64,000 nucleotides of DNA, taken from positions 1 to 64,000 of the forward strand of contig NZ_SOAL01000023.1 of assembly GCF_004364775.1 (NCBI RefSeq), given 5' to 3'. The DNA is from Comamonas sp. JUb58 (GTDB lineage: Bacteria; Pseudomonadota; Gammaproteobacteria; Burkholderiales; Burkholderiaceae_C). Shown here piece by piece: positions 1,272 through 15,284 of the stretch (the first letter of the stretch is position 1; every line of letters starts with the position of its first letter). The translations under genes were made by a program, and so were the position numbers. Under the pieces are notes generated by a model that saw only the letters and a list, made by a program, of their open reading frames with translations, did no database searches and was not told the DNA's origin.

Positions 1272-1394
1272 GCAATCTCCAATCGAAAATGATTAATAGT
1301 TAGTTTTAATCTAACACATAGAAGATTTCGATTTGCAGTTTTGTGGCGGATGTAAGCCAACCCAGGGTTGGCCCTAGTTCATTTTCAGGCGTTT

Positions 1395-1417
1395 TGTATA
1401 CACTTAATGTATGCATA
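1395..1417. promoter_or_regulatory. Paired 8-bp palindromes, candidate operator upstream of the permease operon
   Basis: Two perfect 8-bp palindromes, TGTATACA (1395-1402) and TATGCATA (1410-1417), lie with centres 15 bp apart in the intergenic region (1272-1556) between the RHS gene and the NCS1 permease. The surroundings are AT-rich compared with the genes. Such paired dyads suggest binding by a dimeric regulator, for example of the GntR type, but no regulator gene is adjacent. The rest of the gap shows no gene. Confidence 0.35.
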
Positions 1418-1556
1418 TGTGCACACAAAGCATAGCCATTGAGGCCCTGATTTTCTGCTGCACATGCCATGCATGGACCCGCGCACATGACGAGACAATG
1501 CCGGCCGCAAGGCCGTTAATAAGGCGCACCTGGATGCGCCCGATCCAAGGATGTCA

Positions 1557-3089
1557 ATGACCGATCTTGCAGCAACCCAGAACGCAGGCTTTGCCTTCAA
1601 CCCCGCCCAGCAGCGGCCCGCCGATGGCGGCGACTTGCCCGCCGGCGTATGCCCCTCGCTCTACAACAAGGACCTGGCTCCCACCAAAAAAGACAGCCGA
1701 TCCTGGGGCGCTTACAGCCTGTTCACGCTCTGGGCCAATGATGTGCACAGCCTGGGCAACTACGCCTTTGCCATCGGCCTGTTTGCGTTGGGCCTGGGCG
1801 GCTGGCAGATTCTGACGGCGCTGATGATGGGCGCCGGCCTGCTGTTTGTGCTGCTGACCTTGTCGGGCTTCATGGGCCCCAAGACGGGCGTGCCTTTTCC
1901 GGTGATGAGCCGCATCAGCTTTGGCACCCGGGGCGCGCAGATTCCGGCGCTGATCCGGGGCGGTGTTGCGATTGCCTGGTTTGGCATCCAGACCTACCTG
2001 GCCTCCAAGGTGCTCGACGTGCTGTTGATCACCCTCTTCCCCAGCCTGCAGGCGCTGCTCGCGCACCAGGTGCTGGGCCTGCCGGTGCTCGGCTGGATCA
2101 GCTTCAGCCTGCTGTGGGTGGTGCAGACGATGATCGCCTGCTGGGGCATGGAGAGCATCCGCAAGTACGAGGCCTTTGCCGGCCCGGTGATTCTGGTGAC
2201 CTTCATCGCGCTGGCCGGCTGGGTGCTGTACAGCTCGGGCGGCAAGATCCAATGGACGGCGCCCAAGCCCAGCACCGGTGGTGCCATGTGGGTGCAGATC
2301 ATGGGTGCAGCCTCGCTGTGGGTCGCCATCTACGGCACCTTTGTGCTCAATTTCTGTGACTTCACCCGGGGCGCCACCTCGCGCAGCGCCGTGGTCAAGG
2401 GCAACTTCTGGGGCATTCCCATCAACATGCTGATCTTCGGCCTGATCGTCGTCGTGCTGACCGGCGGCCAACTGGCCATCGATGGCACCCTGATCCTGAG
2501 CCCCACCGACATCGTCGAGAAGATCCCCAACAAGCCGCTGCTGATTCTGGCCAGCCTGTCGCTGCTGATCCTGACCATCGCCGTCAACCTGATGGCCAAC
2601 TTTGTCGCCCCCGCGCTGGCCCTGGCCAACCTGCTGCCGCGCCAGCTCAACTTCCGCCGCGCTGCGCTGGTCAGCGCCATCCTCGGCTTTGTGATCCTGC
2701 CCTGGAACCTCTACGATTCGCCGCTGGTGATCCTGTATTTCCTGGGCGGTCTGGGCTCCTTCCTGGGCCCGCTGTTCGGTATCGTGATGGCCGACTACTG
2801 GCTGATCCGCAAGGAGCGCGTGCATGTGCCTGCGCTCTACAGCGATGACCGCAACGGCCCTTACCATTACGAAAACGGTGTCAACCGCCGCGCCATCCAG
2901 GCCCTGGTGCCCTCGGCCCTGATTGCGCTGCTGTTCGCCTTCCTGCCGGCGCTGGAGTCGGTGTCCCATTTCTCCTGGTTTATTGCGGCCGGGCTCGGCG
3001 GCCTGTTCTACTGGCTGCTGACCCCCAAGGGCCAGCACTACGAAGACCAGGACGGCGAGGCCATTGCCGTGAACCATGCCCAACATTGA
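1557..3089 (+). CDS. NCS1-family nucleobase/allantoin/hydantoin:cation symporter
   Basis: A protein of 510 residues, typical of the NCS1 family, with about 12 hydrophobic segments. Family features include the N-terminal S-W-G-A-Y-S-L-F-x-L-W-x-N-D segment and the run G-x-P-F-P-V-M-x-R-x-S-F-G-x-x-G-A-x-I-P-A-L-I-R-G. These carriers import purines, pyrimidines, allantoin or hydantoins across the inner membrane with sodium or protons. The ATG at 1557 is preferred over the one at 1551 because AAGG at 1547-1550 sits six bases before it but directly abuts the earlier ATG. The gene ends 15 bases before a racemase-family gene, forming a two-gene unit. That partnership favours a hydantoin, allantoin or related ureide as substrate, but the substrate is inferred. 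Confidence 0.88.
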   Translation: MTDLAATQNAGFAFNPAQQRPADGGDLPAGVCPSLYNKDLAPTKKDSRSWGAYSLFTLWANDVHSLGNYAFAIGLFALGLGGWQILTALMMGAGLLFVLLTLSGFMGPKTGVPFPVMSRISFGTRGAQIPALIRGGVAIAWFGIQTYLASKVLDVLLITLFPSLQALLAHQVLGLPVLGWISFSLLWVVQTMIACWGMESIRKYEAFAGPVILVTFIALAGWVLYSSGGKIQWTAPKPSTGGAMWVQIMGAASLWVAIYGTFVLNFCDFTRGATSRSAVVKGNFWGIPINMLIFGLIVVVLTGGQLAIDGTLILSPTDIVEKIPNKPLLILASLSLLILTIAVNLMANFVAPALALANLLPRQLNFRRAALVSAILGFVILPWNLYDSPLVILYFLGGLGSFLGPLFGIVMADYWLIRKERVHVPALYSDDRNGPYHYENGVNRRAIQALVPSALIALLFAFLPALESVSHFSWFIAAGLGGLFYWLLTPKGQHYEDQDGEAIAVNHAQH

Positions 3090-3104
3090 GACGGAGTTTT
3101 TTGC

Positions 3105-3839
3105 ATGCGCATTCTGATCGTGAACGTCAACACCACCGAGAGCATGACCGAGGCCATTGGCGCCCAGGCGCGCCGGGCCGCATCGCCAGGCACCGAGATC
3201 GTCGCCCTCACCCCGCGCTTTGGCGCCGAATCGGTGGAGGGCAATTTTGAAAGCTACCTCTGCGCTGTCGGCGTGATGGATGCGGTGATGCGCTACGACC
3301 AGCCCTTTGATGCCGTCATCCAGGCCGGCTACGGCGAGCATGGCCGCGAAGGCCTGCAAGAGCTGCTGGAAGTGCCTGTGGTCGACATCACCGAGGCAGC
3401 GGCATCGACCGCCATGTTCCTGGGCCACAAATACGCCGTGGTCACCACCTTGGACCGCGCCGTGCCGCTGATCGAAGACCGGCTCAAGCTGGCCGGCCTG
3501 GATGCGCGCTGCGCCTCGGTGCGCGCCAGCGGCATGGCCGTGCTGGAGCTGGAGAGCCAGCCCGAGCGCGCGGTCGATGCCATCGTGCAGCAGGCGGCCA
3601 AGGCCGTTGAAGAAGACCATGCCGAGGTCATCTGCCTGGGCTGCGGCGGCATGGCCGAGCTGGAAGACAAGGTGCGCAGCCGCACCGGCGTGCCCGTGGT
3701 CGATGGCGTGGCCGCAGCGGTGACGATCGCCGAATCGCTGGTGCGCCTGGGCCTCAAGACCTCCAAGGTGCGCACCTATGCGCCGCCGCGCGCCAAGCGC
3801 ATCACCGGCTTTCCGCTGCCCGATTCGCTGGGCCGCTGA
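3105..3839 (+). CDS. Asp/Glu/hydantoin racemase-family protein with a single active-site cysteine
   Basis: A protein of 244 residues starting at an ATG preceded by GGAG. It opens with M-R-I-L-I-V-N-V-N-T-T, typical of hydantoin and allantoin racemases. Cofactor-independent racemases of this fold use two cysteines. The second is present, in C-L-G-C-G-G (Cys180). At the first site, normally a Cys in a motif like A-C-F-G-D-P-G, the sequence is A-G-Y-G-E-H-G, so residue 75 is Gly. Arylmalonate decarboxylase of the same superfamily also has Gly at this site and one catalytic Cys. The gene follows the NCS1 permease by 15 bases and probably acts on the imported compound. It could be a decarboxylase, isomerase or atypical racemase; the reaction cannot be fixed from sequence. 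Confidence 0.8.
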   Translation: MRILIVNVNTTESMTEAIGAQARRAASPGTEIVALTPRFGAESVEGNFESYLCAVGVMDAVMRYDQPFDAVIQAGYGEHGREGLQELLEVPVVDITEAAASTAMFLGHKYAVVTTLDRAVPLIEDRLKLAGLDARCASVRASGMAVLELESQPERAVDAIVQQAAKAVEEDHAEVICLGCGGMAELEDKVRSRTGVPVVDGVAAAVTIAESLVRLGLKTSKVRTYAPPRAKRITGFPLPDSLGR

Positions 3840-3874
3840 ACGTCTCCACGAACCCCTCTCCGTTTACTCCAACC

Positions 3875-3897
3875 GCCCTGCACCGCAGGGCTTTTTT
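3875..3897 (+). terminator. Rho-independent terminator after the racemase-family gene
   Basis: GCCCTGC-ACC-GCAGGGC forms a perfect 7-bp stem with a 3-base loop, followed by six T. It lies between the converging racemase-family gene and VWA gene and closes the permease operon on the plus strand. Confidence 0.85.
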
Positions 3898-3924
3898 CTG
3901 GCCGCCGTTGGCTGCTTTTGGAGG

Positions 3925-5166
3925 CTACTGGCTGGTCTTGAAGCCCTGGGTCGCCGCCCAGGCGGCTACATCGTCGCGGCGGATCGCAGCGGCCATCAGC
4001 TGCGGGAAGGCATCCGGCGTGCAGGCAAAGGAAGGCACGCCCAAAGCGGCCAGCTTGGCGGCCAGCGCGGCATCATAGGCGGGGGCACCTTCGTCGCTCA
4101 GCGCCAGCAAGGTGATGAACTGCACACCGGACTCCACCAGCTCATTGGCGCGGCGCAGCAGGCCTGACTCTACCCCGCCTTCGTACAGGTCCGAGATCAG
4201 CACCAGGATGGTGTTGCGCGGCTCGCTGATCAGGCTTTGGCAGTAGCCCACGGCACCATTGATGTCGGTACCACCGCCCAGCTGCACGCCAAACAGCACA
4301 TCGACCGGGTCGTCGAGCTTTTCGGTCAGGTCCACCACGGCCGTGTCAAACACCACCAGCTTGGTAGCTACCGCTGGCAGGCTGGCCATCACCGCACCAA
4401 AGATGCTGGAGTAGACCACCGAGTTGGCCATGGAGCCGCTTTGGTCGATGCACAGAATCACCTCGCGCTGCGGGCGGCGCGCCTTGCGGCCGTAGCCGAT
4501 CAAGGTTTCGGGGACGATGGTCTTGTACTCCGGCTGCCAGTGGCGCAGGTTGGCGCGTATCGTGCGGTTCCAGTCGATCTCGGCATGGCGCGGACGGCGG
4601 TTGCGCTGGCTGCGGTCCAGCGCGCCGGCCACGGCGCTGCGCATCGGCTCTTCGAGCTTTTTCATCAGCTCGTCCACCACCTTGCGCACCACCAGGCGCG
4701 CGGTGGCCTTGGTGTTTTGCGGGATGACCGAGCCCAGCGAAATCAGGTTGGCGACCAGGTGCACATCGGGCTGCACGTTCTCCAGCATCTCGGGCTGCAG
4801 CAGCAGCTCGCGCAGCTGCAGGCGCTCCATCGCGTCGCGCTGCATCACCTGCACCACCTGGCTCGGAAAGTACTTGCGGATATCGCCCAGCCAGCGCGAC
4901 ACCGAGGGCGAAGAATTGCCCCGGCCGCCCTTGCGCGAACCGAGCTGGCTGTCGCCCTCGTAGAGCGCGGCCAGCGCCTGGTCCATCTCCTGCAGGCGTC
5001 CGCCCACGGTTCCGCAGCTGGCATCGGCCGGGCTGCCCAGCACCATGCGCCAGCGCTGCAAGCGGGTGGTCGGCTGCAGCGCCTCTGCCGCGTCGGCTGC
5101 CAGGGTTTGGCTATCGTCTTGCGCCGGGCCTGGCGCGGGATGGGTGGCATTCGTCATCGTCATCAC
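3925..5166 (-). CDS. VWA-domain protein of a MoxR/VWA operon (YehP-like)
   Basis: A 413-residue cytosolic protein. The C-terminal half is a von Willebrand factor A domain with a complete metal-ion-dependent adhesion site: D-Q-S-G-S-M at 241-246, G-G-G-T-D at 297-301 and I-S-D at about 324-326. The N-terminal half is helical and contains a basic stretch (185-193). VWA proteins commonly partner with MoxR AAA+ ATPases, the pair acting in assembly, metal insertion or complex remodelling. The ATG overlaps the stop of the upstream DUF5682 gene by 4 bases, so translation is coupled. It is the last gene of the five-gene operon. In E. coli the comparable protein is, from memory, YehP, which has no known function. 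Confidence 0.88.
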   Translation of the reverse strand: MMTMTNATHPAPGPAQDDSQTLAADAAEALQPTTRLQRWRMVLGSPADASCGTVGGRLQEMDQALAALYEGDSQLGSRKGGRGNSSPSVSRWLGDIRKYFPSQVVQVMQRDAMERLQLRELLLQPEMLENVQPDVHLVANLISLGSVIPQNTKATARLVVRKVVDELMKKLEEPMRSAVAGALDRSQRNRRPRHAEIDWNRTIRANLRHWQPEYKTIVPETLIGYGRKARRPQREVILCIDQSGSMANSVVYSSIFGAVMASLPAVATKLVVFDTAVVDLTEKLDDPVDVLFGVQLGGGTDINGAVGYCQSLISEPRNTILVLISDLYEGGVESGLLRRANELVESGVQFITLLALSDEGAPAYDAALAAKLAALGVPSFACTPDAFPQLMAAAIRRDDVAAWAATQGFKTSQ

Positions 5167-7724
5167 TCCAGCGTGGGGGCGTCGTTGCGGGGGGCCGAGG
5201 CAGCGGTGATCTGCGCCAGCAAATCGGGTGGCAGCTCCAGCCCCAGCAAGGTGTTGAGCAGTGGCAAGGCCAGCACGGCGCGCGCCTCGTCCCAGGGTGC
5301 ATCCCCATCGCCCAGCGCCAAGGCGGCGGCAGGCACAGCCGCACCGGCCACCGGCGCGCGCCGGGCCTTGTCGCCCAGGCTCTGGCGCTCATGCTTGCTG
5401 AAGTTGGCAAAGCTGCGCCGCACCAGCGGCAAAATCTGCGCAAACTGCACTTCGCCCAACCCGGCCAGCCAGGCATCGACGGCACCCCAGATGGCCTCGT
5501 CGTGCAGCAGCACCAGTGCCTGCTGGTTCAAAAAGCCATCCAGCCAGGCGGCCACATCCAGCGGCGCCGCGCCCAAGGACAGGTTGCGGTTGAACTGCAG
5601 CACCACCTCGGCGCTTTCCAGCAGATGCTCATCGAGCAGCAGCCGGCAGGCCATGCCGCGCAGCAAGGCCGCAGCGGCATCGCCCATCGCCAGGCTGCGC
5701 AGCGCAGCGCGCCAGGCATCCACAGCGGCCTGGGCCTCCGTGCCGCGCAGGCGCAGCGCCTCGTGCGCGGCCAGCACCTTGCCCTTCATCGCCGCAGCGG
5801 CCTCTTCGTCCATCGCCATGCAGGCCACTGGCAAGCCAATGGCGGCGCGCAGCACCAGCGAATCGATGACCGTGGCCAGCAAGGCCGTATCGGTCTGGCG
5901 CACGCTGCCGTAGCGGTACACATTGGCCAGCGGCGGCAGTGCCTGCAGCAGCTGCGCCACATCGCCGGTGGTGGCCGCGCGCTCGGCCAGGGTCTCAATC
6001 AGCGACTCGACCAGCTGTGGCAGATTGGCCAGCAGCGCGTCATCAATCGCCTGCGCAATCTCGGGCAAGGGGGTATCGGGCGAGAGGCTGGCGCGCAGGC
6101 GTGCGGTGGCGGCCTGCGCCACGGTGGCGCCATGCACACTGGCCTCGATGATGCGCACGGCCAGCTCCGGCTCCCACTGCATCTGCCAGCTCTCGCGGAA
6201 GGTGCCACGGTTGCGTTGTGCATCGACCGCACGCGTGCCCCAGCCAATGCCCAACAAGCGCAGGCGGTGCAGAAAATGGCTGCGCGCCAGGTCGGTTTCC
6301 TTGCGCAGATCCAAGGCCAGCAGCTTGCTGGCCGCCTCGGGCTTCATGCGCAGCGATTTCTGCTGCTGCTCGATATCGCGCTGCAACGGCACCTGCGGCA
6401 CATCGGCGGGCACGGTGCCCAGCACATGGCCGACGGTGAGCTCGTCGTCGATCAGGTTCAGCGGCGCGGTCTCTCCCATGCAGACCACCGTGACGATGGC
6501 CTCGTTGATCTCCTGCAGCCCCGGTATCGGCTGGCCACGCATGGCAGCCAGGCCTTCGGCCAAACGGGTGGCCTCGATGATGTGGGCGCTGGAGCAGTCC
6601 AGGTCCTTGTCGCGCAGCAGGCGTGCCACGCGGGTCAGCCAGCCTGCGGTGCGCAAGGTGGCGGCATCACGCGCGCTGCGGGCAGGTACGGCCAGGCCTT
6701 CTGCCGCTTGCTGTGCCAAGGCCGCATCGGCCCGGTAGCACTGCCAGAGATGCTCGTACCAGCCCGGCGAGGTGACGCCTGCGCCATAGCCGCTACGGCT
6801 GGCCAGGTTGCGGTAGGTCCAGGGCGCCCAGGTCGCCAGCACCTTGGCTTTGGGCAGGCCCTTGAGCACGGCGCTGTCGGCCTTGGCGGTGGTGCTTTGC
6901 TGCAGGGCGGGCACATGCCAGGCGCCGCAGACCACGGCAATGCGCTGGTAGCCGGCCCTAACTGCTTCACGGATGCACTGGCGCATATGCGCCTCCCGCT
7001 GGGCCTCGCGCAGCACATAGTGGGGGCCGCGCCAGGCCTCGCCCTCGTCGCCCAACTCGCTGCGCACCGCCGTCATGGCCTCGTTGATGCTGGTAAACAG
7101 CGCTTCGCTGTTGCCGCGTTCTTCCACCAGGCGGTTCCACCAGCTCTCGCCATCCTCAAAGCCGGCTGCATGGGCCAGCCAGTCGAGCGGGTCGCGCATC
7201 GGCGCTTGCGGGGCTGCAGGGGGTTCGCCGGCATCGCTGTCCACATCCGCCACCGGGGCCGTGTCGGCGCTGGCCTCGGCGGCATCGACAGGCGCCTCCT
7301 CCGCTATCGCCACCGCATCGTCCTCGCCCTCTTCCCCGTCCACGTCTTGCGCAGGCTCCGGCTTTTTCAGTGCCTGGCGCCGTGCCCAGTCCTGGGCCAT
7401 CGCATGGGTTTGGGGCAGGTCGATAAAGCGCGTGGCCACCCCTTGCTCGCTCGCCCATTGCAGCGCCTGCCACTCGGGCGAGAACTCGGCAAAGGGGTAG
7501 AACGCCGCCTGGCTGGGCTCGTCTTGCATGTACACCAGCATGGCCACCGGCGGGCGCAGCTCGGCACTGCGCAGCATGGGCAGCAGGGCCTCGCCTTCGG
7601 GCGGGCCTTCCACCAGCAGGCAGTCGGGCTGCAGTTGCGCCAGCGCTTGCACCAGGCTGCGCGCACAGCCCGGGCCGTGGTGGCGAATGCCAAAGAAATG
7701 GACGTTGTCAGCAGAAGTGGCCAT
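5163..7724 (-). CDS. DUF5682 family protein (YehM-like)
   Basis: An 853-residue protein beginning with F-F-G-I-R-H-H-G-P-G-C-A-R-S-L and then L-L-V-E-G-P-P-E-G, the N-terminal signature of the DUF5682 family. These conserved His, Glu and Gly residues suggest an active or binding site, but no biochemical activity is established. Residues around 135-185 form an acidic, Ala/Pro-rich low-complexity insert that looks like a flexible linker. No signal peptide or membrane segment is seen. It sits between the MoxR ATPase gene (47 bases upstream) and the VWA gene (4-base overlap). It is likely a partner or client of the ATPase. Family call firm, function unknown. Confidence 0.85.
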   Translation of the reverse strand: MATSADNVHFFGIRHHGPGCARSLVQALAQLQPDCLLVEGPPEGEALLPMLRSAELRPPVAMLVYMQDEPSQAAFYPFAEFSPEWQALQWASEQGVATRFIDLPQTHAMAQDWARRQALKKPEPAQDVDGEEGEDDAVAIAEEAPVDAAEASADTAPVADVDSDAGEPPAAPQAPMRDPLDWLAHAAGFEDGESWWNRLVEERGNSEALFTSINEAMTAVRSELGDEGEAWRGPHYVLREAQREAHMRQCIREAVRAGYQRIAVVCGAWHVPALQQSTTAKADSAVLKGLPKAKVLATWAPWTYRNLASRSGYGAGVTSPGWYEHLWQCYRADAALAQQAAEGLAVPARSARDAATLRTAGWLTRVARLLRDKDLDCSSAHIIEATRLAEGLAAMRGQPIPGLQEINEAIVTVVCMGETAPLNLIDDELTVGHVLGTVPADVPQVPLQRDIEQQQKSLRMKPEAASKLLALDLRKETDLARSHFLHRLRLLGIGWGTRAVDAQRNRGTFRESWQMQWEPELAVRIIEASVHGATVAQAATARLRASLSPDTPLPEIAQAIDDALLANLPQLVESLIETLAERAATTGDVAQLLQALPPLANVYRYGSVRQTDTALLATVIDSLVLRAAIGLPVACMAMDEEAAAAMKGKVLAAHEALRLRGTEAQAAVDAWRAALRSLAMGDAAAALLRGMACRLLLDEHLLESAEVVLQFNRNLSLGAAPLDVAAWLDGFLNQQALVLLHDEAIWGAVDAWLAGLGEVQFAQILPLVRRSFANFSKHERQSLGDKARRAPVAGAAVPAAALALGDGDAPWDEARAVLALPLLNTLLGLELPPDLLAQITAASAPRNDAPTLE

Positions 7725-7771
7725 GGGCTCGTCAGCGTTGTCGGGGGCAGAAGAAGAACGGTGTCAGCGGC

Positions 7772-8854
7772 TTAGATTTGCTCGCGGCAGGCGCGGTACA
7801 GGTCTTTCCATTCGGCACGTTCTTTGACCACGGTCTCCAGGTATTCCTTCCAGACCACGCTGTCCTGCACCGGGTCCTTGATGACGGCGCCCAGCAGGCC
7901 GGAGGCGACATCGTGCGCACGCAGCACGCCATCGCCAAAATGGCCGGCCAGTGCCATGCCGCTGTTGATCACCGAGATCGCTTCGGCGGTCGACAAGGTG
8001 GAGCTGGGCGACTTGATGCGCACGGTCTTGCCGTCTTCGGTCTGGCCATTGCGCAGCTCGCGGAAGATCTGCACCACGCGGCGCACTTCTTCCAGCGCCG
8101 GTGCCTCGGCAGGCAGCTGCAGCGCGCGGCTTTGCTCGCCCACGCGCTTGGTGACGATCTGCACCTCCTCGTCCTGCGAGGCCGGCACCGGCAGCACGAC
8201 GGTGTTGAAGCGGCGCTTCAAGGCGCTCGACAGCTCGTTGACACCCTTGTCGCGGTTGTTGGCCGTGGCGATCACCGAGAAGCCGGCAACGGCCTGGAAC
8301 TCGGTCGAGAGCTCGGGCACCGGCAAGGTCTTTTCGGACAGCACGGTGATCAAGGTGTCCTGCACATCGGCGGGGATGCGGGTCAGCTCTTCGATGCGGG
8401 CGATCTTGCCCAGCTTCATCGCATGCACCAGCGGGCTGGGGATCAGCGCATTTTCCGAGGGGCCATGGGCCAGCAGCTGAGCATAGTTCCAGCCGTAGCG
8501 CAACTGCTCTTCGCTGGTGCCGGCCGTGCCCTGGATCAGCATGGTCGAGTCACCACTCACGGCCGCCGACAGATGCTCGGACACCCAGGACTTGGCCGTG
8601 CCGGGCACGCCGTACAGCAGCAGTGCGCGGTCGGTGGCCAGGGTCGAGACGGCAATCTCCATCAGGCGTGGGCTGCCGATGTACTTGGCGCTCACCTCAA
8701 AACCATTGCTCAGCTTGCCGCCCATCAGGTACTGCAGCACGGCCCAGGGCGAGAGCTTCCAGTTGGGCGGACGCGGACGGTCATCGGCCTTTTGCAGGGC
8801 ATCTAGTTCTTCGGCAAATTGCTGCTCGGCATGCTGGCGTAGTACTTGGCTCAT
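7772..8854 (-). CDS. MoxR-family AAA+ ATPase (YehL-like)
   Basis: The translated protein is 360 residues. Seen are Walker A G-V-P-G-T-A-K-S (82-89), a Walker B-like I-A-R-I-E-E-L-T-R (151-159) in which Glu-Glu replaces the common Asp-Glu, sensor 1 I-A-T-A-N-N (195-200) and an arginine-finger segment A-L-K-R-R-F (211-216). MoxR ATPases act as hexameric chaperones, usually with VWA proteins. A longer reading frame extends upstream to 9316 but overlaps the DUF5691 gene; the ATG at 8854 begins the family-like sequence. The gene lies 43 bases after DUF5691 and before DUF5682. It probably belongs to the YehL subgroup of MoxR proteins; that assignment is from memory of the family. Confidence 0.92.
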   Translation of the reverse strand: MSQVLRQHAEQQFAEELDALQKADDRPRPPNWKLSPWAVLQYLMGGKLSNGFEVSAKYIGSPRLMEIAVSTLATDRALLLYGVPGTAKSWVSEHLSAAVSGDSTMLIQGTAGTSEEQLRYGWNYAQLLAHGPSENALIPSPLVHAMKLGKIARIEELTRIPADVQDTLITVLSEKTLPVPELSTEFQAVAGFSVIATANNRDKGVNELSSALKRRFNTVVLPVPASQDEEVQIVTKRVGEQSRALQLPAEAPALEEVRRVVQIFRELRNGQTEDGKTVRIKSPSSTLSTAEAISVINSGMALAGHFGDGVLRAHDVASGLLGAVIKDPVQDSVVWKEYLETVVKERAEWKDLYRACREQI

Positions 8855-8897
8855 GGTGTGCTTCCGGTAGAGATCAAAAGGTTCGGGGTGGGCGCCA

Positions 8898-10607
8898 TCA
8901 GGCGGGCTGGGCCGCTTGCAGCGCCAGGCGCAGATCGACAATGCGGTTGAGTTGGGTGAGCACCTGCTCGTCATCCCAGGGGCGAAGACGCGAGCGCTCC
9001 AGGCGCGCTTGCTGCTCCTGCTTGAGCTTGGCGATGTCGGCCTCGCTGCTGCCTTCGGGCACCACCAGCGCAGCGGCGTCTTCAGTCGCCGTGGGCTCGG
9101 CGGGCACTGGCGCCCGTGGCGCGCGCCACAGCTGCGCAAAGCGCTCCAGGTCGCCCTCCTGCAGGCGGCGTGCGCAGGCCAGAATCGCATGGTCGGCCTG
9201 CCAGCTGTGCCAGTTGCCGGCAGGCTGGCGCGCCTGCAAGGTGCTGAGCAAGGCCTCCAGCAACCAGCGGGACATCGCAGGCGACAGCAAGGCGGTGCGC
9301 TCCATGCTCTCGTCAATGCGGTGGATGGCCTCGATGAAGGCGCTCTTGCCCAGCTTGGCCTGCAGCTGGGCCAGCCACTGGGTTTCGCGTTCTTCGGCGC
9401 TGAGTTCGGCCATCAGCAGCGGCAGCACATCGCTGCTGCGCGAGTCGCTCTCCATGCTCTGGATCAGCGGCAGCCAGCGCACATCGCGCTGCGCACGCAG
9501 CGCCGCGATCCAGCCCTGGCGCAGCGCGCTTTTCCAGTCGCTGCGGCGGCTCCATTCCCAGAGCTGCTCGGGCGTCTTTTCCAGATGGCGGTGCCAGAAA
9601 TCGAGGGGCGTGAGCTCTACCAGCTGCTGCAGCCACCAGGCGCGATGGCCCTTGATATAGGCGGGCGGCTGCAAAGTGACGCCGTCGCGCTCCCAGTCCT
9701 TGTGACCCTCTTGCGGCGGCTCGATCTGCCACTCGCCCTTGGCATCCTGGCTCAGCATGGCCTGCAGCGCGGCGCCCATGCGCTGGCTGTGCGGGCTGTG
9801 CGGCAGGCGTGCCAGCAGGCTGGCGGCCGACTCGCGCACTTCCTTGCTGCGGTCACCCAGCAGCTTTTCCAGCAAGGCCTCATCGTCTGCCGACAGGCCG
9901 CGCGCCAGGCTCTGCACCATGGGCGCACGCTCGCGGGCGCCCAGTTCCTTGAGGCTGGCCTCCAGCCGCGCGCGGGCGCCTGCCGGGTCGGTGGCGCGCT
10001 GCTGCTGCAGCAAGGCCACGCGCTGCTCCAGCGAGCCTTCCTGCCAGATCTGCTCGGCATCGGCCGTCTCTTGCACGCCATGCGCATAGGCCCACTGCGG
10101 GTTCTGTGCGGCCAGCCAGCGGCCGCGCTCGCCCAGCACCGGGGTCAGCCACTGGCGCAGTTCCACCGATTGGCGGCCCTGGTGCAGCGCATCCACCAGC
10201 AGCGCATAGGGCAGGCGCTGGCCGGCCGCATCGAGGCTGGCCAAGGCCAGTGCCAGCAGTTCGGGCGCATGGCCCTGCAGCACCTCGCCGAGCAGCCGCA
10301 ACAGCTGATCGCCCTGGGGCGCCGGGCGCGATTCAGCCGCCGGTGGCGGCAAGGCTGCGGCTAGCGCCGTCGCAGCGGGCGTTGCGGGGCGCCAACCGGC
10401 GCGCTCCAGCACCGCAGCCACAGCGGTGGCGCGCAGCAGCTGCACCGCCTTGCTGTCTGCCGGCAGCAGCAGCGCCGCCTGCAGCGCTTGCTGGCTGGCC
10501 GGCGCCGTGCGGTCGATGCCCTGGCTAAAGATGGCTGGCAGCGCCAGCCGCTCGGCACCCACCAGCGCCGATTGCTGCAACGCAGCCCAAAGATTTGCAT
10601 GGCTCAC
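8898..10607 (-). CDS. DUF5691 family protein
   Basis: A 569-residue protein whose N-terminus (W-x-x-L-x-x-x-A-L-V-G-A-E-R) and helical, Leu/Ala/Gln-rich body match what I know of DUF5691. The sequence looks like helical repeats of a HEAT type, for example E-V-R-E-S-A-A-S-L-L-A-R-L-P near the middle, which would suit a scaffold. No catalytic motif, signal peptide or membrane segment is recognised. Its ATG overlaps the stop of the SWIM gene by 4 bases. I do not recall a stand-alone DUF5691 gene in the E. coli yeh cluster, so this component may mark a bacterial variant of the system. Function unknown. Confidence 0.8.
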   Translation of the reverse strand: MSHANLWAALQQSALVGAERLALPAIFSQGIDRTAPASQQALQAALLLPADSKAVQLLRATAVAAVLERAGWRPATPAATALAAALPPPAAESRPAPQGDQLLRLLGEVLQGHAPELLALALASLDAAGQRLPYALLVDALHQGRQSVELRQWLTPVLGERGRWLAAQNPQWAYAHGVQETADAEQIWQEGSLEQRVALLQQQRATDPAGARARLEASLKELGARERAPMVQSLARGLSADDEALLEKLLGDRSKEVRESAASLLARLPHSPHSQRMGAALQAMLSQDAKGEWQIEPPQEGHKDWERDGVTLQPPAYIKGHRAWWLQQLVELTPLDFWHRHLEKTPEQLWEWSRRSDWKSALRQGWIAALRAQRDVRWLPLIQSMESDSRSSDVLPLLMAELSAEERETQWLAQLQAKLGKSAFIEAIHRIDESMERTALLSPAMSRWLLEALLSTLQARQPAGNWHSWQADHAILACARRLQEGDLERFAQLWRAPRAPVPAEPTATEDAAALVVPEGSSEADIAKLKQEQQARLERSRLRPWDDEQVLTQLNRIVDLRLALQAAQPA

Positions 10608-12016
10608 AGCACTTCACCCCGGTTCTGCCAGATGTTGGTCCAAGGCGCCTGGCCATCGCCCGCCTGCCAGGCACTGAGCAGGCGCCAGCGCCCTGACTGC
10701 TGGCCGCCTTCCCATTCGCCAAACAGCGCCATCGGAGAGCCACCACCCAGCGCCTGCAGTTGCCAGGCATGGTCATCGGCCACGGCCAGCGGCACCAGCG
10801 CGGCGGCCGCGTCCCCTTGCGGCCAGACGGCATACCACTGGCCCGCGCTGACCTGCAAACGCGCCTGGCCGCACCACAGCGGCTGCACCGCCTGCAGGGG
10901 GTTGGCGGCAATGCGCTGGCTCAGCTGCGCCAAGGCATCGCGCCATGCGGCCTCGCCCAAAGGGGCGCCGGCGCCGGGCGCCAGCAGTTCGATATCAGCA
11001 CCCGCAATGGCGCGCAGCGGCGCCTGGCCGGGGTAGAAATGCAGGCTGCCCCGGTAGCATTGCGCCGGCACCCAGGCGGTCTCAAAACCCCGGCCGCCTT
11101 GCGCATAATCCAGCAGCCAGGCGATGCGCCCGCTCTGCTGGCCTTGCAGCCATACGCGGCGCTCCAGCAAGCGGCCTTCGCGCTCGATCTGGCGCAGGCC
11201 TACGACCCGCCAGTCATCGGCCACCACCTGGCCGCGCGCCTGCACCTCGGCCTTGTCCATGGGCCAGCCCAGCGCGGCCATCACATCGGCACGGGTCTCG
11301 GCGCTCAGGGCATCGCGGCGTGCCACCGCATCGGCCAGCAACTGCCAGTGGCCCAGCTGCACCAGCAGGTCACGCGACCATTGCGGGTGGCTGTCCACCA
11401 GCTCCCAGGCCTCCTTGATGCGGGCGGCCATGCCGCTGGCCTGCGCATCGATCATGCGCGCGGCCATGGTGTTCCAGTGCTGGCGCGCCTGGTGGTCGCC
11501 CGAGAGGTTGGCCAGGCCGTTGCGCAGCATGTCCTGCATCCACAGCTGCAGCTCCTGCATGCCGGCGGCCACCTTGTCCCAGCGCTTGTCGTCGCGCTTG
11601 GCCTGTTGCTTGGCCATTACCTCGGGATCGGGCGGCGGCGCAGCAGCAATGGCGGCGGCCTTGGCTTCTTTTTTCTCGGCTTTTTCAGCGCGGCTGTCCA
11701 GCCAGGCGCTGACCCAGGCGGGCGGCTCGGCATTGTCAGCCACCTGGCCGGCAGCGCGCAGCAGCATCAGCGCCAGGCCATGTTTGCAGGGGAATTTGCG
11801 GCTCGGGCAAGAGCACTTGAAGGAGGGCCCGCTCAGATCAACCTGGGTCTGGTAGGGCTTGGAGCCGCTGCCCTGGCATTCGCCCCAGGCTGCCGTTTCG
11901 TTGCAGCCCAGGCTGGGCCATTTGCTGGGGTTCTTCAACCCTTGTGCCGCCTTGGTGGAAGAGGCATCCGGTGACAGCGCCACCACCTCGGCTTCGGTTG
12001 CTAAGACACGTGACAA
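10604..12016 (-). CDS. SWIM zinc-finger protein (YehQ-like)
   Basis: Translated from a TTG at 12016, the protein has 470 residues. The start is chosen because AAGGGGAGG lies just upstream and the following sequence, S-R-V-L-A-T-E-A-E-V-V-A-L-S-P-D, reads like the N-terminus of SWIM proteins; an ATG-started extension to 12130 would run through the promoter-like dyad. The zinc ligands C-x-C-x(6)-C-x-H appear in F-K-C-S-C-P-S-R-K-F-P-C-K-H-G (about residues 84-98). SWIM domains bind DNA or protein. A Lys/Ala/Glu-rich segment follows at about 125-160. It is the first gene of the operon and may act as its substrate-recognition or nucleic-acid-binding part. Role inferred. Confidence 0.86.
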   Translation of the reverse strand: MSRVLATEAEVVALSPDASSTKAAQGLKNPSKWPSLGCNETAAWGECQGSGSKPYQTQVDLSGPSFKCSCPSRKFPCKHGLALMLLRAAGQVADNAEPPAWVSAWLDSRAEKAEKKEAKAAAIAAAPPPDPEVMAKQQAKRDDKRWDKVAAGMQELQLWMQDMLRNGLANLSGDHQARQHWNTMAARMIDAQASGMAARIKEAWELVDSHPQWSRDLLVQLGHWQLLADAVARRDALSAETRADVMAALGWPMDKAEVQARGQVVADDWRVVGLRQIEREGRLLERRVWLQGQQSGRIAWLLDYAQGGRGFETAWVPAQCYRGSLHFYPGQAPLRAIAGADIELLAPGAGAPLGEAAWRDALAQLSQRIAANPLQAVQPLWCGQARLQVSAGQWYAVWPQGDAAAALVPLAVADDHAWQLQALGGGSPMALFGEWEGGQQSGRWRLLSAWQAGDGQAPWTNIWQNRGEVL

Positions 12017-12042
12017 ACCGCCTCCCCTTCCGTTCAATCTGT

Positions 12043-12071
12043 TAGTAATCCGCTTTATAGATTTATTACTA
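12043..12071 (-). promoter_or_regulatory. Candidate promoter of the SWIM-to-VWA operon, with a dyad around the -10
   Basis: On the minus strand a TATAAA -10-like hexamer (12059-12054) lies inside a perfect 7-bp inverted repeat, TAGTAAT (12043-12049) and ATTACTA (12065-12071). The -35 region is weak. It is about 35 bases upstream of the TTG start of the SWIM gene. The dyad spanning the -10 looks like a repressor or activator operator. Confidence 0.4.
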
Positions 12072-12143
12072 GCGGCATCGCACGATTGTAGGCAGGGTCC
12101 AAGACGAAATGATGCAAGACGGGCCTCCAACCCGCCTGGCGTC

Positions 12144-12431
12144 TCACTTTTTTACAGATTTGCGGCGTTCCCAAGCCAGCATCGTGAGGATGACGATGGC
12201 GGCGCTGAGCGAGATATGGCCGCACCAGGTGACCAGGCCCAGCGACCAGCCCTTGAGCCCGACTGCGATGGCCAGCGAGGCCAGCAACGCAAGCCAGCCG
12301 GCCAGGCGCAGGCCCCGGGTCTGGCCGGGTGGCAGCTCACGGCCAAACAGGTCGAGCTGGTGGCGGTCCATGGCCAGCGCCAGCAGTGCAAACGCCGGCA
12401 GCGATACCAGTTGAATGGCAAGGTGGTTCAT
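12144..12431 (-). CDS. DUF3325 small membrane protein of the iron-uptake locus
   Basis: A 95-residue protein with three hydrophobic segments (about 5-20, 42-60 and 66-86) and the sequence A-L-A-M-D-R-H-Q near residue 20, which I associate with DUF3325. Its start overlaps the PepSY gene stop by 4 bases. DUF3325, DUF3649 and PepSY-TM genes regularly cluster beside TonB-dependent siderophore receptors in Burkholderiales, suggesting a shared inner-membrane step of iron release or reduction. That role is inference from context. Confidence 0.8.
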   Translation of the reverse strand: MNHLAIQLVSLPAFALLALAMDRHQLDLFGRELPPGQTRGLRLAGWLALLASLAIAVGLKGWSLGLVTWCGHISLSAAIVILTMLAWERRKSVKK

Positions 12432-14140
12432 GGCCGGGCCTCCTGCAGATCGGACGCAATGGCAGCATTGGCAGCCACGGCGCCACTATCAGCAGCACGG
12501 GCGGCAGGCGCTTGCCGTGGCGCCGCCTGGCGCTGCGGCTTGAGCTTGGGCTTGTGGCGCCAGGTGCGCACCGCCAGCCAGGCATGCAGCGCGGCCAGCG
12601 CCAGCAAGGTCAGCTCCAGCCCGCTGAACACCCAGTCACCCTCGACCAAGCTGCGCCACAGCGGACGGTCAGTGGTCAGCACATTGAGGACCGGCAGCAA
12701 GGCCAGTGCCGCGCAACCGGCCCAGAGCAGCTCCACCCAGGCGCGTTTGGCTGGCCGCAGCATGGCCCAGACCAGGCTGGCACCCCAGAGGATGAAGAAC
12801 CAGTGGATCTCCCAGTCGCTGCGCTTTTCCATGCCCAGCGGCAACAGGCGGTTGGCCCAGAGCATGGCGGCCATGCCAATGCTGAGGCCGGCAATCGCAG
12901 CAATGTTCAGCCGCTCCACCAGCCAGAAGCCAAAGTAAGGCTTGTCCGGATTGGGCAACTTGGTGCGGCGCTTGACGGTCCACATCACCAGGCCGGTGCC
13001 GACCATGGCCGTGCCCGCCAGGCTGGTGAGGAAGTAGAGCCAGCGCACGGTGCTGTCGCCAAAGCGGCCCAGGTGCAGGGCATAGAGCACGCCCCGCGTC
13101 TCGGCCGCTGCGCCAACCTGATCCTTGACCTCCAGCAGCTTGCCGGTGCTGCCCTCGAACAGCATGTATTTGGGGCTGATCGACACGCGCTCGAAATCGC
13201 CATAGGTGACGATCACGCGCGCCGAGGCATCGCCGGCGTTGTTGACGGTGACGCGGCCAATGCGGTCCTCGCCCCAGCGCTGCTGGGCCTGGCGCACCAT
13301 GTCGCCCAAGGGGGCCAGCGGCGCGGCCACACCACTGGGCTTGCCTGCTGGGATGAACGAACTCAGCTCGCTTTGCATGGCCTGGCGCTCAGCCTGGGTC
13401 TTGAAGGCGGCGCTGCCGGCCCAGGGCATGGTCATGGCCATCAAGGTGACCAGGCCGGTATAGGTAATCATCGCGTGGAAAGGCAGCCCGAAGACCGACA
13501 GCGCATTGTGCGCATCCAGCCAGGAGCGCTGGCCCTTGCCCCAGCGGAAGGTGAAGAAGTCGACAAAGATCTTCTTGTGCGTGATCACGCCGCTGACAAT
13601 GGCCACCAGCATGAACATGGCGCAGAAACTGGCCAGCCAGCGGGCCCAGAGCACGGGCATGTAATGGAACTGGAAGTGGAAACGGTAGAAGAACTCACCG
13701 CCCACGGTCTCGCGGCCGGCTACCTTCTGGCCGGTCTGCGGATCGAACACCGCGCTGCCAAAGCCGCGCTCGCCCTTTTCGGGCTTGGCAATGCGCCAGA
13801 ACGCGCTCACGACGTTGTTGCGCGCATCGGGCATGCCCAGGCTCCACTGGTTGCTGCCAGGGGCCACTTGCTCCAGCACCTGCGCCACGCGCGGTGCCAC
13901 TTCGGCAGCATCGGGCACCACGGCCTGGTGGGCCAGCTCGGGCCGCATCCACTGCGAAATCTCTTCCTTGAAGTAGCTCACCGTGCCGGTGAGAAACATC
14001 GCATACAGAATCCAGCCCACCAGCAGCCCGGCCCAGATGTGCAGGTCGGACATGGTCTGGCGAATGCCGCGTACCGCTGGCTTGCTCGGTTTGCTATCTT
14101 TTTTATCAATGGCAGTCATGCCGGAGTCACTCCATTCCAT
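12428..14140 (-). CDS. PepSY-associated transmembrane protein
   Basis: A 570-residue inner-membrane protein. A cytoplasmic lead of about 28 residues is followed by a transmembrane segment at about 31-53 and a periplasmic PepSY-like region, then paired transmembrane segments around 195-220 and 245-275 and further ones towards the C-terminus. His-rich loops such as F-H-F-Q-F-H-Y and D-A-H-N-A-L-S-V resemble PepSY_TM proteins (PiuB-like), some of which are thought to reduce or release iron from siderophores at the inner membrane. It overlaps the upstream DUF3649 gene by 25 bases and the downstream DUF3325 gene by 4 bases, so the three are co-translated. Confidence 0.87.
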   Translation of the reverse strand: MEWSDSGMTAIDKKDSKPSKPAVRGIRQTMSDLHIWAGLLVGWILYAMFLTGTVSYFKEEISQWMRPELAHQAVVPDAAEVAPRVAQVLEQVAPGSNQWSLGMPDARNNVVSAFWRIAKPEKGERGFGSAVFDPQTGQKVAGRETVGGEFFYRFHFQFHYMPVLWARWLASFCAMFMLVAIVSGVITHKKIFVDFFTFRWGKGQRSWLDAHNALSVFGLPFHAMITYTGLVTLMAMTMPWAGSAAFKTQAERQAMQSELSSFIPAGKPSGVAAPLAPLGDMVRQAQQRWGEDRIGRVTVNNAGDASARVIVTYGDFERVSISPKYMLFEGSTGKLLEVKDQVGAAAETRGVLYALHLGRFGDSTVRWLYFLTSLAGTAMVGTGLVMWTVKRRTKLPNPDKPYFGFWLVERLNIAAIAGLSIGMAAMLWANRLLPLGMEKRSDWEIHWFFILWGASLVWAMLRPAKRAWVELLWAGCAALALLPVLNVLTTDRPLWRSLVEGDWVFSGLELTLLALAALHAWLAVRTWRHKPKLKPQRQAAPRQAPAARAADSGAVAANAAIASDLQEARP

Positions 14141-14442
14141 ACCGGCCAGGCGGCCAGCAGCAGCGGTACCGCGGCCAGCAGCAGCCCCACCCAGGCACGG
14201 GTGGCCGAACGCACCGCAAACACCCAGATCACCGCGCCGGTGTAGACCAGAAAGCTGGCCATGGTGCCGGCCAGCACGGCCTGGGGTTTGGCCATGGGCA
14301 AGGCCAGCACGGCCACGCTGGCCACGGCCGCCAGCGCGTAGCCGCCGCCAATGGCGGCGACGATGCGCGACAGCAGCGGGCCGACCTGGCAGGCCTTGGC
14401 CAGCGCGGCGCGCAAGGCGCCGCTCAGCACTTGGCTGGTCAT
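14116..14442 (-). CDS. DUF3649 small membrane protein
   Basis: A 108-residue protein with about three hydrophobic segments and a family-typical N-terminus including L-S-R-I-V-A-A-I-G-G-G-Y-A-L-A. The start overlaps the stop of the DUF4198 gene by 4 bases and the end overlaps the PepSY gene by 25 bases. The tight packing implies one operon with the receptor. It is expected to be an inner-membrane partner of the PepSY protein in iron handling; the precise function is unknown. Confidence 0.82.
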   Translation of the reverse strand: MTSQVLSGALRAALAKACQVGPLLSRIVAAIGGGYALAAVASVAVLALPMAKPQAVLAGTMASFLVYTGAVIWVFAVRSATRAWVGLLLAAVPLLLAAWPVWNGVTPA

Positions 14443-15167
14443 TTGGCCGGGTTGGGCGTTGCCACAGGGCCAGCAGCCACGGGAGCCACGCCTTCAGGCT
14501 TCACATAGGTAACCGAGGTCACATAGCTCACGCCGTCGTACTTTTCGCCAGCGCGTTCGCCGGGCGTGCGGTCGTTGTGCTTGATCTCGGCCACGTACTG
14601 GCCTTGCCATGGCAGGTCGAAATGCACCAGGCCTTGGGCATCGGTGTGGCCCTCTTTCATCCAGCCCGATTGGGTGACCACGGCGACCTGGGTCTTGGCC
14701 AGCGGCTGGCCCTTGAAGGTGGCCTTGAACTCACCGTCCTTGCCGGTCGGGGTCAGGTCCAGCGCCAGCTTGGGCTTTTGCGCGGCAAAGCCGGTGACCA
14801 GGCGTGCAGCGGGGTGGTACCAGTTGGTGACATCCTTGCCATCGCGCTTGAACTTGGACAGCGGGTAGTTGGCATCTTCAGCGACGATGGAGACACCGTC
14901 CTGGACGTTGAACGGCAAGGTGAAGCCATTGGCGGTCTTGTTGCCGGCAGCGGCCTTTTCCTCGCCCTTGGCGTTGATCAGCACGCCCTGGGGCTTGCCA
15001 AAGTGGTCCAGCAGGCCGGGGGATGCTTCGCGCAGGTTGTCGCCAAACTCGCCAAAGCGCAGCACCACCGCATGGTCTGCACCGGCAGGCTCCAGCCAGA
15101 TCTGGTGGGCTTGGGCGGACATGGCCAGCACGGCCAGGCTCAGGGCAGACAGGGATTTCTTCAACAT
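14439..15167 (-). CDS. DUF4198 periplasmic protein of the iron/metal-uptake locus
   Basis: A 242-residue protein with a classical signal peptide (basic M-L-K-K, hydrophobic core, probable cleavage after S-A-Q-A near residue 20) followed by H-Q-I-W-L-E-P, the usual mature start of DUF4198 proteins. These are periplasmic beta-rich proteins often encoded with metal transport genes. A strong GGAGAG ribosome site precedes the ATG. The C-terminal tail is Pro/Ala-rich. It follows the TonB-dependent receptor after 117 bases and leads the overlapping run of small membrane genes. It may bind or relay the ligand. Confidence 0.83.
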   Translation of the reverse strand: MLKKSLSALSLAVLAMSAQAHQIWLEPAGADHAVVLRFGEFGDNLREASPGLLDHFGKPQGVLINAKGEEKAAAGNKTANGFTLPFNVQDGVSIVAEDANYPLSKFKRDGKDVTNWYHPAARLVTGFAAQKPKLALDLTPTGKDGEFKATFKGQPLAKTQVAVVTQSGWMKEGHTDAQGLVHFDLPWQGQYVAEIKHNDRTPGERAGEKYDGVSYVTSVTYVKPEGVAPVAAGPVATPNPAK

Positions 15168-15284
15168 ATGCTCTCTCTCCTTTTTTGATAAACATGCTGC
15201 CGGCGCCTTGCGCGCTCCCGCAGCCCACTCCCCAGAACCGGTGGGCGGTCTCTACGCAGCTGCGCGGAAACCACCCTTAGGTTC

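What the first reader, a model, noticed from the sequence alone, without database searches (positions are those of the whole stretch)
3925..12016. Five-gene MoxR/VWA/DUF5682/DUF5691/SWIM operon of unknown biological role
A SWIM zinc-finger protein, a DUF5691 helical protein, a MoxR AAA+ ATPase, a DUF5682 protein and a VWA protein are packed in one minus-strand operon with two 4-base overlaps. The MoxR, VWA, DUF5682 and SWIM parts correspond, from memory, to the E. coli yehL/yehP/yehM/yehQ cluster, which has no known function. The likely logic is a chaperone: the ATPase with its VWA adaptor remodels a complex recognised by the SWIM or DUF5691 protein, while the conserved His/Glu/Gly residues at the DUF5682 N-terminus may form a catalytic or binding site. 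The added DUF5691 scaffold may mark a distinct variant. The operon lies among accessory genes (RHS, iron uptake), so a conflict, repair or metal-insertion role is possible but unproven.
Basis: partly seen in the sequence, partly recalled or inferred. Interest (0 to 1): 0.75.

Follow-up and report, generated by a model that had tools for sequence, protein, structure and literature searches.

The report
Nucleic-acid-linked ATPase machine with hydrolase
Five neighbouring bacterial genes of unknown role form an old, tightly kept unit: an ATP-driven motor and its adaptor, a probable hydrolase of the TraB/TIKI kind, and two proteins that probably bind nucleic acid and hold the parts together.

Summary
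A minus-strand gene run at 3925-12016 encodes SWIM, DUF5691, MoxR, DUF5682 and VWA_CoxE proteins, with two 4-base overlaps. It is a real unit. Of 63 loci with enough flank, 58 have all five as separate genes and 2 more have SWIM and DUF5691 fused in one frame; the loci span ten phylum labels. In 53 Comamonas genomes DUF5691 and this DUF5682 type occur together: 30 both, 1 DUF5691 alone, 22 neither.

(1) The DUF5682 N-domain is homologous to TraB/TIKI-superfamily proteins: profile-profile probability 94%, P 1e-7, putative active-site residues nearly invariant. This also covers E. coli YehM. (2) The SWIM protein is predicted to end in tandem OB folds like HIN-200, SSB and RPA, so it probably binds nucleic acid. 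(3) E. coli yehLMPQ shares only MoxR, DUF5682 and VWA by detectable homology; YehQ is a different SWIM protein, DUF5691 is absent, and a DUF4132 protein (YehI) lies beside it.

Best model: a nucleic-acid-targeted, ATP-driven machine that remodels and cleaves a protein target. Activity, substrate and target are inferred. No defence-island signal was found.

The parts
10604..12016 (-). SWIM protein (470 aa, TTG start): SWIM zinc finger C68xC70...C77xH79, helical middle, C-terminal tandem OB-fold-like region (about residues 263-464)
   Evidence: Pfam SWIM (54 of 54 relatives at E up to 1); AF2 pLDDT 92.1, pTM 0.80; Foldseek top 20 all HIN-200 or SSB
8898..10607 (-). DUF5691 protein (569 aa), probable HEAT-repeat scaffold
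   Evidence: PF18944 E 4.1e-110; HEAT_2 in 13 of 48 relatives at E up to 1, best 8.8e-5, window itself HEAT E 0.028 below cut-off; PDB chain 4xl5_C (bGFP-A, an alphaRep by recall) E 0.0029
7772..8854 (-). MoxR AAA+ ATPase of the YehL type (360 aa); Walker A GVPGTAKS, Walker B with Glu-Glu
   Evidence: AAA_5 E 2.5e-35; phmmer to YehL E 3e-70; G82, G85, K88, E155, E156 in 77 of 77 aligned rows incl. YehL
5163..7724 (-). DUF5682 protein (853 aa): N-terminal TraB/TIKI-like domain (about 1-345) and helical C-terminal part
   Evidence: PF18934 E 2.5e-253; HHalign to TraB prob 94.2, P 1.1e-7; AF2 pLDDT 88.2, pTM 0.83
6690..7715 (-). TraB/TIKI-like domain with motifs G12xRH15H16, E39, FID102, R243E244xxM247, G267xxH270
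   Evidence: Residue conservation in 63 sequences; profile comparisons
3925..5166 (-). VWA (CoxE-like) adaptor protein (413 aa) with MIDAS D241xSxS, T300, D326
   Evidence: PF05762 E 2.7e-52; MIDAS residues in 74-76 of 77 rows

Best explanation
The operon encodes one nucleic-acid-targeted, ATP-driven protein-remodelling and processing machine. The core is MoxR (a probable hexameric motor), VWA (an adaptor whose finger sits in the MoxR pore in the studied pair NorQ-NorD) and DUF5682, whose N-domain is a TraB/TIKI-type hydrolase, most likely a peptidase or amidase. The SWIM protein, through its zinc finger and tandem OB folds, would hold the machine on DNA or RNA, or on a nucleic-acid-bound target. 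The HEAT-type protein DUF5691 would link this targeting part to the core. ATP cycles would then pull or twist the target, through the VWA MIDAS site, into reach of the DUF5682 active site. SHOWN by computation: five-gene unit, TraB homology and motif conservation. PREDICTED: tandem OB folds (model), HEAT repeats (weak to moderate profile matches). INFERRED: complex formation, catalysis, nucleic-acid binding and a protein substrate. E. coli YehL-YehM-YehP would be the same core carrying different partner proteins (YehQ, YehI).
For: Unit: 58 of 63 loci with all five plus 2 with SWIM-DUF5691 fused; Comamonas 30 both, 1 DUF5691 only, 0 type-A DUF5682 only, 22 neither, Fisher P 5e-14; all 6 over-cut-off DUF5691 in 299 Pseudomonadota genomes lie beside type-A DUF5682. 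Hydrolase: DUF5682-N vs 20 TraB proteins prob 94.2, P 1.1e-7, 223 columns, score 60.7 against a maximum of 24.2 in 100 column shuffles and 0.1% for the reversed profile; ChaN vs the same TraB set, a pair of accepted kin, 92.5. Type B alone gives 87.9. His-to-Glu spacing is 24 in 20 of 20 TraB and in 68 of 71 DUF5682; 3 did not fit the search pattern (which prints 25 because it counts to the next residue). H15 61/63, E39 62/63, R243, E244, M247, G267 and H270 63/63. The best of 154 viral-structure matches of the whole model is a TraB family protein (prob 0.98, E 0.11). SWIM protein: Foldseek p204 HINb prob 1.00, E 5.8e-4; top 20 are 16 HIN-200 (11 by title, 5 by recall) and 4 SSB chains. Core conserved, partners divergent: window identity median MoxR 75%, VWA 62%, DUF5682 48%, SWIM 39%, DUF5691 30% over 65 loci. 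MoxR-VWA mechanics come from NorQD (PMC9976466 passages; PMC13036017 abstract).
Against: No activity, binding or complex was measured; no multimer prediction was made. HMMER scans of 10 DUF5682 N-domains up to E 10 listed no TraB, ChaN or Ere family. Foldseek of the whole DUF5682 model against PDB gave nothing at E <= 0.001; the 50 rows shown are mostly helical repeats and designs. HHalign to a first, GumN-like TraB set was weak (prob 1.4-2.4 with raw profiles; 10.8 after trimming), to ChaN 26 raw but 8.9 after trimming, to Ere 0.14. Type A alone vs the strong TraB set reaches only 63.9 over 76 columns. That TraB set was picked by me and its frames were chosen by a GxxH pattern. The second Glu of the 2His/2Glu motif described for VvRRSP lies two residues before the first His; here that place is I13. 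Some superfamily members are not enzymes (PMT lacks the catalytic motif, PMC6254334 passages; ChaN binds haem, recalled). OB similarity is fold-level only: one match at E <= 0.001, TM about 0.35 by target, no OB family among Pfam hits of 54 members and no OB chain in a PDB profile search. OB folds also bind proteins and sugars. The 80 loci are the best of 576 confirmed, so conservation is biased upwards.
Confidence: 0.45

Rival explanations
1. Maturation chaperone: MoxR-VWA remodels a metal- or cofactor-containing enzyme, as NorQD and CoxDE do, and DUF5682 is a non-catalytic metal or haem carrier with the TraB/ChaN fold.
For: VWA is CoxE-like; NorQD acts in metal insertion (PMC9976466 passages; PMC13036017 abstract); DUF5682 also matches ChaN profiles (prob 26 raw, 8.9 trimmed); yehM is among genes mutated in copper-evolved E. 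coli (PMC12409786 passages).
Against: No recurrent client enzyme beside the operon in 80 loci; a nucleic-acid-type SWIM/OB protein is not expected for a cofactor chaperone.
Confidence: 0.2
2. RNA or ribonucleoprotein remodelling, by analogy to Rea1/midasin (AAA+ plus MIDAS): the SWIM/OB protein binds RNA and the motor releases or matures an RNP.
For: OB folds and SWIM fingers fit RNA as well as DNA (fold match); ZSWIM8 bound to AGO2-miRNA is among the fold matches (rank 40, prob 0.98, E 0.079).
Against: No neighbour gene family recurs in more than 6 of 80 loci; RNA genes beside the loci were not searched. Patchy presence, 31 of 53 Comamonas, argues against a core ribosome step.
Confidence: 0.2
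3. Immunity or conflict system like the vWA-MoxR-VMAP/iSTAND ternary systems.
For: Shared MoxR-VWA plus third component plan (PMC7159879 passages); OB match to innate DNA sensors of the HIN-200 type; YehL weakly matches bpMoxR, E 0.0012, below cut-off; MoxR matches the MadB_ATPase model below cut-off (47.5 of 475 bits).
Against: PADLOC finds in the operon only a weak IetA match (E 0.0067; the full DUF5691 frame was not in that call); no VMAP-type domain listed; flanks not defence-like; window MoxR median 75%, minimum 67% identical over 65 loci, and a DUF5682 tree that follows phyla, 11 changes against a minimum of 9; 0 relatives in viral contigs.
Confidence: 0.1

Closest known systems
E. coli yehI-yehL-yehM-yehP-yehQ region (YehL subfamily of MoxR)
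   Same: MoxR, DUF5682 and VWA are homologous and in the same order; a SWIM protein (YehQ) and a DUF4132 protein, HEAT-bearing in a relative, lie beside them.
   Different: YehQ shares only the SWIM finger; no DUF5691 in the E. coli control genome; DUF4132 protein YehI instead. Six Bacteroidota loci carry both DUF5691 and DUF4132.
TraB/PrgY and ChaN proteins (TIKI superfamily)
   Same: DUF5682 N-domain aligns over 223 columns with the GxxH, Glu, R[ED]xxM and GxxH motifs and the same His-Glu spacing as TraB.
   Different: DUF5682 has a long helical C-terminal part and a fixed MoxR-VWA partnership; first motif is GxRHH; activity unknown.
NorQ-NorD, RavA-ViaA, CbbQ-CbbO (MoxR-VWA pairs)
   Same: MoxR motor and VWA protein with intact MIDAS.
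   Different: Here a hydrolase-fold protein, a HEAT-type protein and a SWIM/OB protein are constant neighbours; Walker B is Glu-Glu.
vWA-MoxR-VMAP and iSTAND ternary conflict systems (Kaur et al., PMC7159879, passages)
   Same: MoxR-VWA plus a third component.
   Different: No VMAP match, conserved composition, slow evolution.
HIN-200, SSB, RPA tandem OB proteins
   Same: Predicted fold of the SWIM protein's C-terminal part.
   Different: No sequence similarity detected; joined to a SWIM finger.

Membership tests
MoxR AAA+ ATPase, YehL subfamily | AAA_5 domain, MoxR-type Walker A, sequence similarity to YehL | tested here: met
   AAA_5 E 2.5e-35; YehL phmmer E 3e-70; Walker A GxPGTAK conserved
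MoxR AAA+ ATPase, YehL subfamily | ATP hydrolysis and hexamer | not testable with these tools
   needs biochemistry; Walker B Asp is Glu in 77 of 77 rows incl. YehL
MoxR-VWA pair | neighbouring VWA protein with MIDAS DxSxS-T-D | tested here: met
   D241, S243, S245 in 76, T300 in 74, D326 in 76 of 77 rows
TraB/TIKI superfamily | profile homology to TraB or ChaN over the domain | tested here: met
   HHalign 94.2, P 1.1e-7, 223 columns; TraB vs four unrelated families at most 1.6, DUF5682-N vs the same four at most 1.2, reversed 0.1; not seen by HMMER
TraB/TIKI superfamily | two His and the strand-2 Glu of the active site | tested here: met
   H15 61/63, E39 62/63, H270 63/63; also in all 6 type-B sequences aligned
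TraB/TIKI superfamily | second Glu of the 2His/2Glu motif, two residues before the first His as in VvRRSP | tested here: not met
   I13 at that place (I 52, V 10, gap 1 of 63); Thr in the TraB set fetched here (GTAH in the four sequences shown), so this Glu does not define the whole superfamily
TraB/TIKI superfamily | three-dimensional fold | tested here: inconclusive
   top viral-structure hit is TraB (prob 0.98, E 0.11), but no PDB hit at E <= 0.001 with the full model
TraB/TIKI superfamily | hydrolase activity | not testable with these tools
   needs assay
E. coli yehLMPQ cluster | homologous MoxR, DUF5682 and VWA in the same order | tested here: met
E. coli yehLMPQ cluster | SWIM protein homologous to YehQ beyond the finger | tested here: not met
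   no phmmer hit at E 1e-4; HHalign 2.1 over 24 columns, YehQ side only 3 sequences
E. coli yehLMPQ cluster | DUF4132 protein (YehI) next to the operon | tested here: not met
   no YehI match in window 1-20000; 6 Bacteroidota relatives have one
Tandem OB nucleic-acid-binding protein | paired OB folds | tested here: met
   Foldseek top 20 all HIN (5 of 16 by recall) or SSB, best E 5.8e-4, prob 1.00; predicted model only
Tandem OB nucleic-acid-binding protein | nucleic-acid binding | not testable with these tools
   needs gel-shift or filter binding
VMAP/iSTAND ternary conflict system | VMAP or STAND third component, or known defence profile | tested here: not met
   no such match in Pfam at E 1e-3, NCBIfam or PADLOC at 0.01, save IetA E 0.0067 and MadB_ATPase far below cut-off; DUF5691 frame not

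The most novel reading that the evidence does not exclude
A new class of ATP-dependent protease: a MoxR-VWA motor coupled to a TraB/TIKI peptidase and targeted to nucleic acid by a SWIM/tandem-OB protein, which removes stuck or crosslinked proteins from DNA (a bacterial counterpart of SPRTN with p97) or from RNA. YehL-YehM-YehP of E. coli would be its best-known and unrecognised core.
Probability: 0.14. Interest if true: 0.9.

Novelty: new variant of a known kind. Interest (0 to 1): 0.62.

Why it matters
YehL is one of seven MoxR subfamilies (PMC3893208 passages), and the function of E. coli yehLMPQ is recalled as unknown. Reading DUF5682/YehM as a TraB/TIKI hydrolase gives catalytic residues to mutate, and the OB folds suggest what the SWIM protein touches. 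That turns a chaperone guess into direct tests in E. coli K-12 and in an environmental Comamonas. If true, it would join an AAA+ motor to a hydrolase fold not known, as far as I recall, to work with one.

Tried and rejected
Defence island: rejected for lack of signal. Of 143 flanking frames, 84 PADLOC families matched at E <= 1e-10; the 25 listed are one member each save mad3 4, mad8 2 and AriA 2, with many RT models and AbiEi among the single ones. The 143 frames are part of 210 chosen mechanically beside the operons; frames over 700 aa and those past the residue limit were left out, so loci L093-L107 are not covered.

Phage or plasmid cargo: 36 pattern matches but 0 relatives in viral contigs; 36 of 72,556 plasmid records, 20 covering 80% or more, including records over 2 Mb; 1 of 50,697 phage records, flagged UNVERIFIED, carrying MoxR-DUF5682-VWA.

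Regulation: no LexA box (at most 1 mismatch) in the 6 Comamonas/Delftia upstream stretches printed; 6 of 54 upstream regions have one such site; no sigma-32-like site in 54. Starts were set by script, so the regions are approximate.

DUF5691 as a relative of DUF4132: weak, 72 HEAT-like columns, prob 9.1.

Profiles tried for DUF5682-N: GumN-like TraB set, Ere, ChaN, then the TraB group of about 400 aa; only the last is strong, and all are reported. The 85% match of DUF5682-N to DUF5682-C I take as an artefact of overlap at the cut.

A mixed fused/unfused alignment for structure prediction (A5) was dropped because DUF5691 rows seemed to fall onto the SWIM half.

Papers: searches for yeh gene names listed mostly chance word matches. 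PMC6442406 (passages) only shows yehQ among genes cloned and deleted in a butanol-tolerance study; PMC12409786 (passages) names yehM among genes mutated under copper.

Rows dropped: A2 holds the window plus 62 of 73 DUF5682 frames of 720-900 aa (11 over 78% identical left out; frames outside that length not used). A3 holds the window plus 47 of 48 non-redundant DUF5691 frames (fragment L083 left out). A4 holds the window plus 53 non-redundant of 60 SWIM frames. One search used the 65 loci with all five separate.
Full report
WHAT IS THERE. The nearest relative in the 80 loci fetched is Comamonas sp. BIGb0152 (89% over DUF5682). DUF5682 matched 12 of 299 and DUF5691, over its cut-off, 6 of 299 sampled Pseudomonadota genomes. 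All 6 DUF5691 genomes have the SWIM, MoxR, DUF5682 and VWA genes around it in the same order. labels five of the six DUF5691 genes; the sixth, in G253, is placed between the SWIM and MoxR genes.

IT IS A UNIT. In 63 of these with at least 5.5 kb upstream and 1.3 kb downstream of DUF5682, 58 have all five families as separate genes. Two more (L043 Hydrogenophaga, L070 Isosphaeraceae) have SWIM and DUF5691 in one reading frame. The exceptions are L055 and L073 (DUF5682 alone) and L092 (MoxR, DUF5682, VWA). Of all 80 loci, 55 have exactly SWIM-DUF5691-MoxR-DUF5682-VWA, 6 (Bacteroidota) add DUF4132, 3 (Streptomyces type) have DUF5691-SWIM divergent from the rest, 2 are fused, 1 (L090) has VWA in front, and 13 show fewer families, 10 of them without the flank needed for the count. 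No other neighbour family recurs in more than 6 loci. In 53 Comamonas genomes 30 have both DUF5691 and type-A DUF5682 (told apart by score), 1 (G321) DUF5691 alone, 22 neither. In 7 genomes a type-B-scoring copy occurs, in 3 of them without type A.

TWO ARCHITECTURES. Type B (E. coli and 7 of the 12 relative loci) has MoxR, DUF5682 and, where the contig reaches, VWA and YehI-like (DUF4132) genes; one of the 7, L025, is cut at its contig end. A YehQ-type match is seen in 2 of them (L024, L026), and L021 has a SWIM-like frame. Homology between types covers MoxR, DUF5682 and VWA. The SWIM proteins share no more than the finger. Both types may carry a HEAT-type protein: DUF5691, and DUF4132 proteins with HEAT_2 at E 2.9e-10 in L074, weak in L075 (0.0093) and not listed in E. 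coli YehI. So one core appears to be combined with different partner proteins.

DUF5682 IS A TraB/TIKI-SUPERFAMILY PROTEIN. The motifs G12xRH15H16, E39, R243E244xxM247 and G267xxH270 are nearly invariant. In the AF2 model (pLDDT 88.2) H15/H16, E39, D102 and H270 follow strands 8-13, 35-38, 97-100 and 262-267, the usual place of an alpha/beta active site. HHalign against ChaN gave prob 26, P 7e-4 with raw profiles and 8.9 after trimming; against 20 TraB proteins of about 400 aa it gave 94.2, P 1.1e-7 over 223 columns. Controls: reversed TraB profile 0.1; four unrelated families at most 1.6 against TraB and 1.2 against DUF5682-N; 100 column shuffles at most score 24.2 against 60.7; ChaN against the same TraB set 92.5. 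The His-Glu spacing is 24 in 20 of 20 TraB and 68 of 71 DUF5682. The whole-model search of viral structures ranks a TraB protein first (prob 0.98, E 0.11). Against this, Pfam HMMER scans of 10 N-domains list no TraB, Foldseek on PDB shows mostly helical repeats, and Ere profiles fail. The 2His/2Glu active site of the superfamily is taken from passages of PMC6254334.

THE SWIM PROTEIN. Its model (pLDDT 92.1) has strands, and in the second half a helix, in the order of OB folds in the last 200 residues. Foldseek's top 20 are 16 HIN-200 chains (11 by title, 5 by recall) and 4 SSB chains (best E 5.8e-4, prob 1.00), followed by RPA among others; ZSWIM8 with AGO2-miRNA is rank 40. Among 54 members Pfam finds the SWIM finger in all and no OB family. 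Nucleic-acid binding is therefore a prediction.

CORE AND PARTNERS. Over 65 loci the window's median identity is MoxR 75% (minimum 67), VWA 62 (56), DUF5682 48 (41), SWIM 39 (29) and DUF5691 30 (19). These are best hits, so biased up. Pairwise identity matrices correlate (r 0.69-0.92), and the DUF5682 tree (FastTree) needs 11 phylum changes against a minimum of 9. This pattern fits an old, mostly vertically kept machine with frequent loss better than a fast-moving conflict system. MoxR carries Glu-Glu at Walker B in 77 of 77 rows including YehL.

MECHANISM. From NorQD (PMC9976466 passages; PMC13036017 abstract), the VWA finger enters the MoxR pore and ATP hydrolysis twists or stretches the VWA partner. 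I infer that here the force acts on a target held on nucleic acid by the SWIM/OB protein and the HEAT-type scaffold, and that DUF5682 hydrolyses a bond in it. Each step after 'five-gene unit' and 'TraB homology' is inference; the substrate is unknown.

PRINT. In the held library no paper contains DUF5682 or DUF5691. A search for TraB, MoxR, TIKI, von Willebrand and AAA+ (any three) listed 10 of 36 papers, none of the 10 with TraB or TIKI; a further search with SWIM zinc finger gave 4 papers, none with that phrase or DUF5682. Kaur et al. (PMC7159879) was seen in passages only; the words YehL, YehP, SWIM, TraB and DUF5682 do not occur in its held text. Subscription papers were not searchable, and I did not check Pfam's clan notes, so prior recognition elsewhere is possible.

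Noticed in passing
window 17757-19070 (-): One frame fuses an ECF sigma factor (Sigma70_r2, r4_2) with a FecR anti-sigma domain, next to a TonB siderophore receptor; resembles IutY of Pseudomonas putida (recalled).
   Followed up: partly
window 7772-8854 (-): MoxR/YehL Walker B reads Glu-Glu instead of Asp-Glu in 77 of 77 aligned rows, including E. coli YehL; an unusual fixed change in an AAA+ motor.
   Followed up: partly
L043:3443-6790 and L070:3782-6745: SWIM and DUF5691 in a single reading frame in two distant phyla.
   Followed up: partly
L074, L075, L086, L098, L100, L101: Bacteroidota loci with DUF4132 (YehI-like) added to the DUF5691-type operon, bridging the two architectures.
   Followed up: partly
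L052:5649-7849: Two frames inserted between MoxR and DUF5682 in Allochromatium warmingii; the first looks by eye like a DNA methyltransferase (no family search made).
   Followed up: no
MT835988.1 (L191:166-4876): An UNVERIFIED faecal 'phage' scaffold carries MoxR-DUF5682-VWA in order; possibly a mislabelled bacterial fragment.
   Followed up: partly
window 31640-32082 (+): Four tRNA-Asn(gtt) genes in tandem.
   Followed up: no
G344:C8:45113-47525: DUF5682 matched in two separate frames in one Comamonas genome: perhaps a decaying copy or a sequencing error.
   Followed up: no
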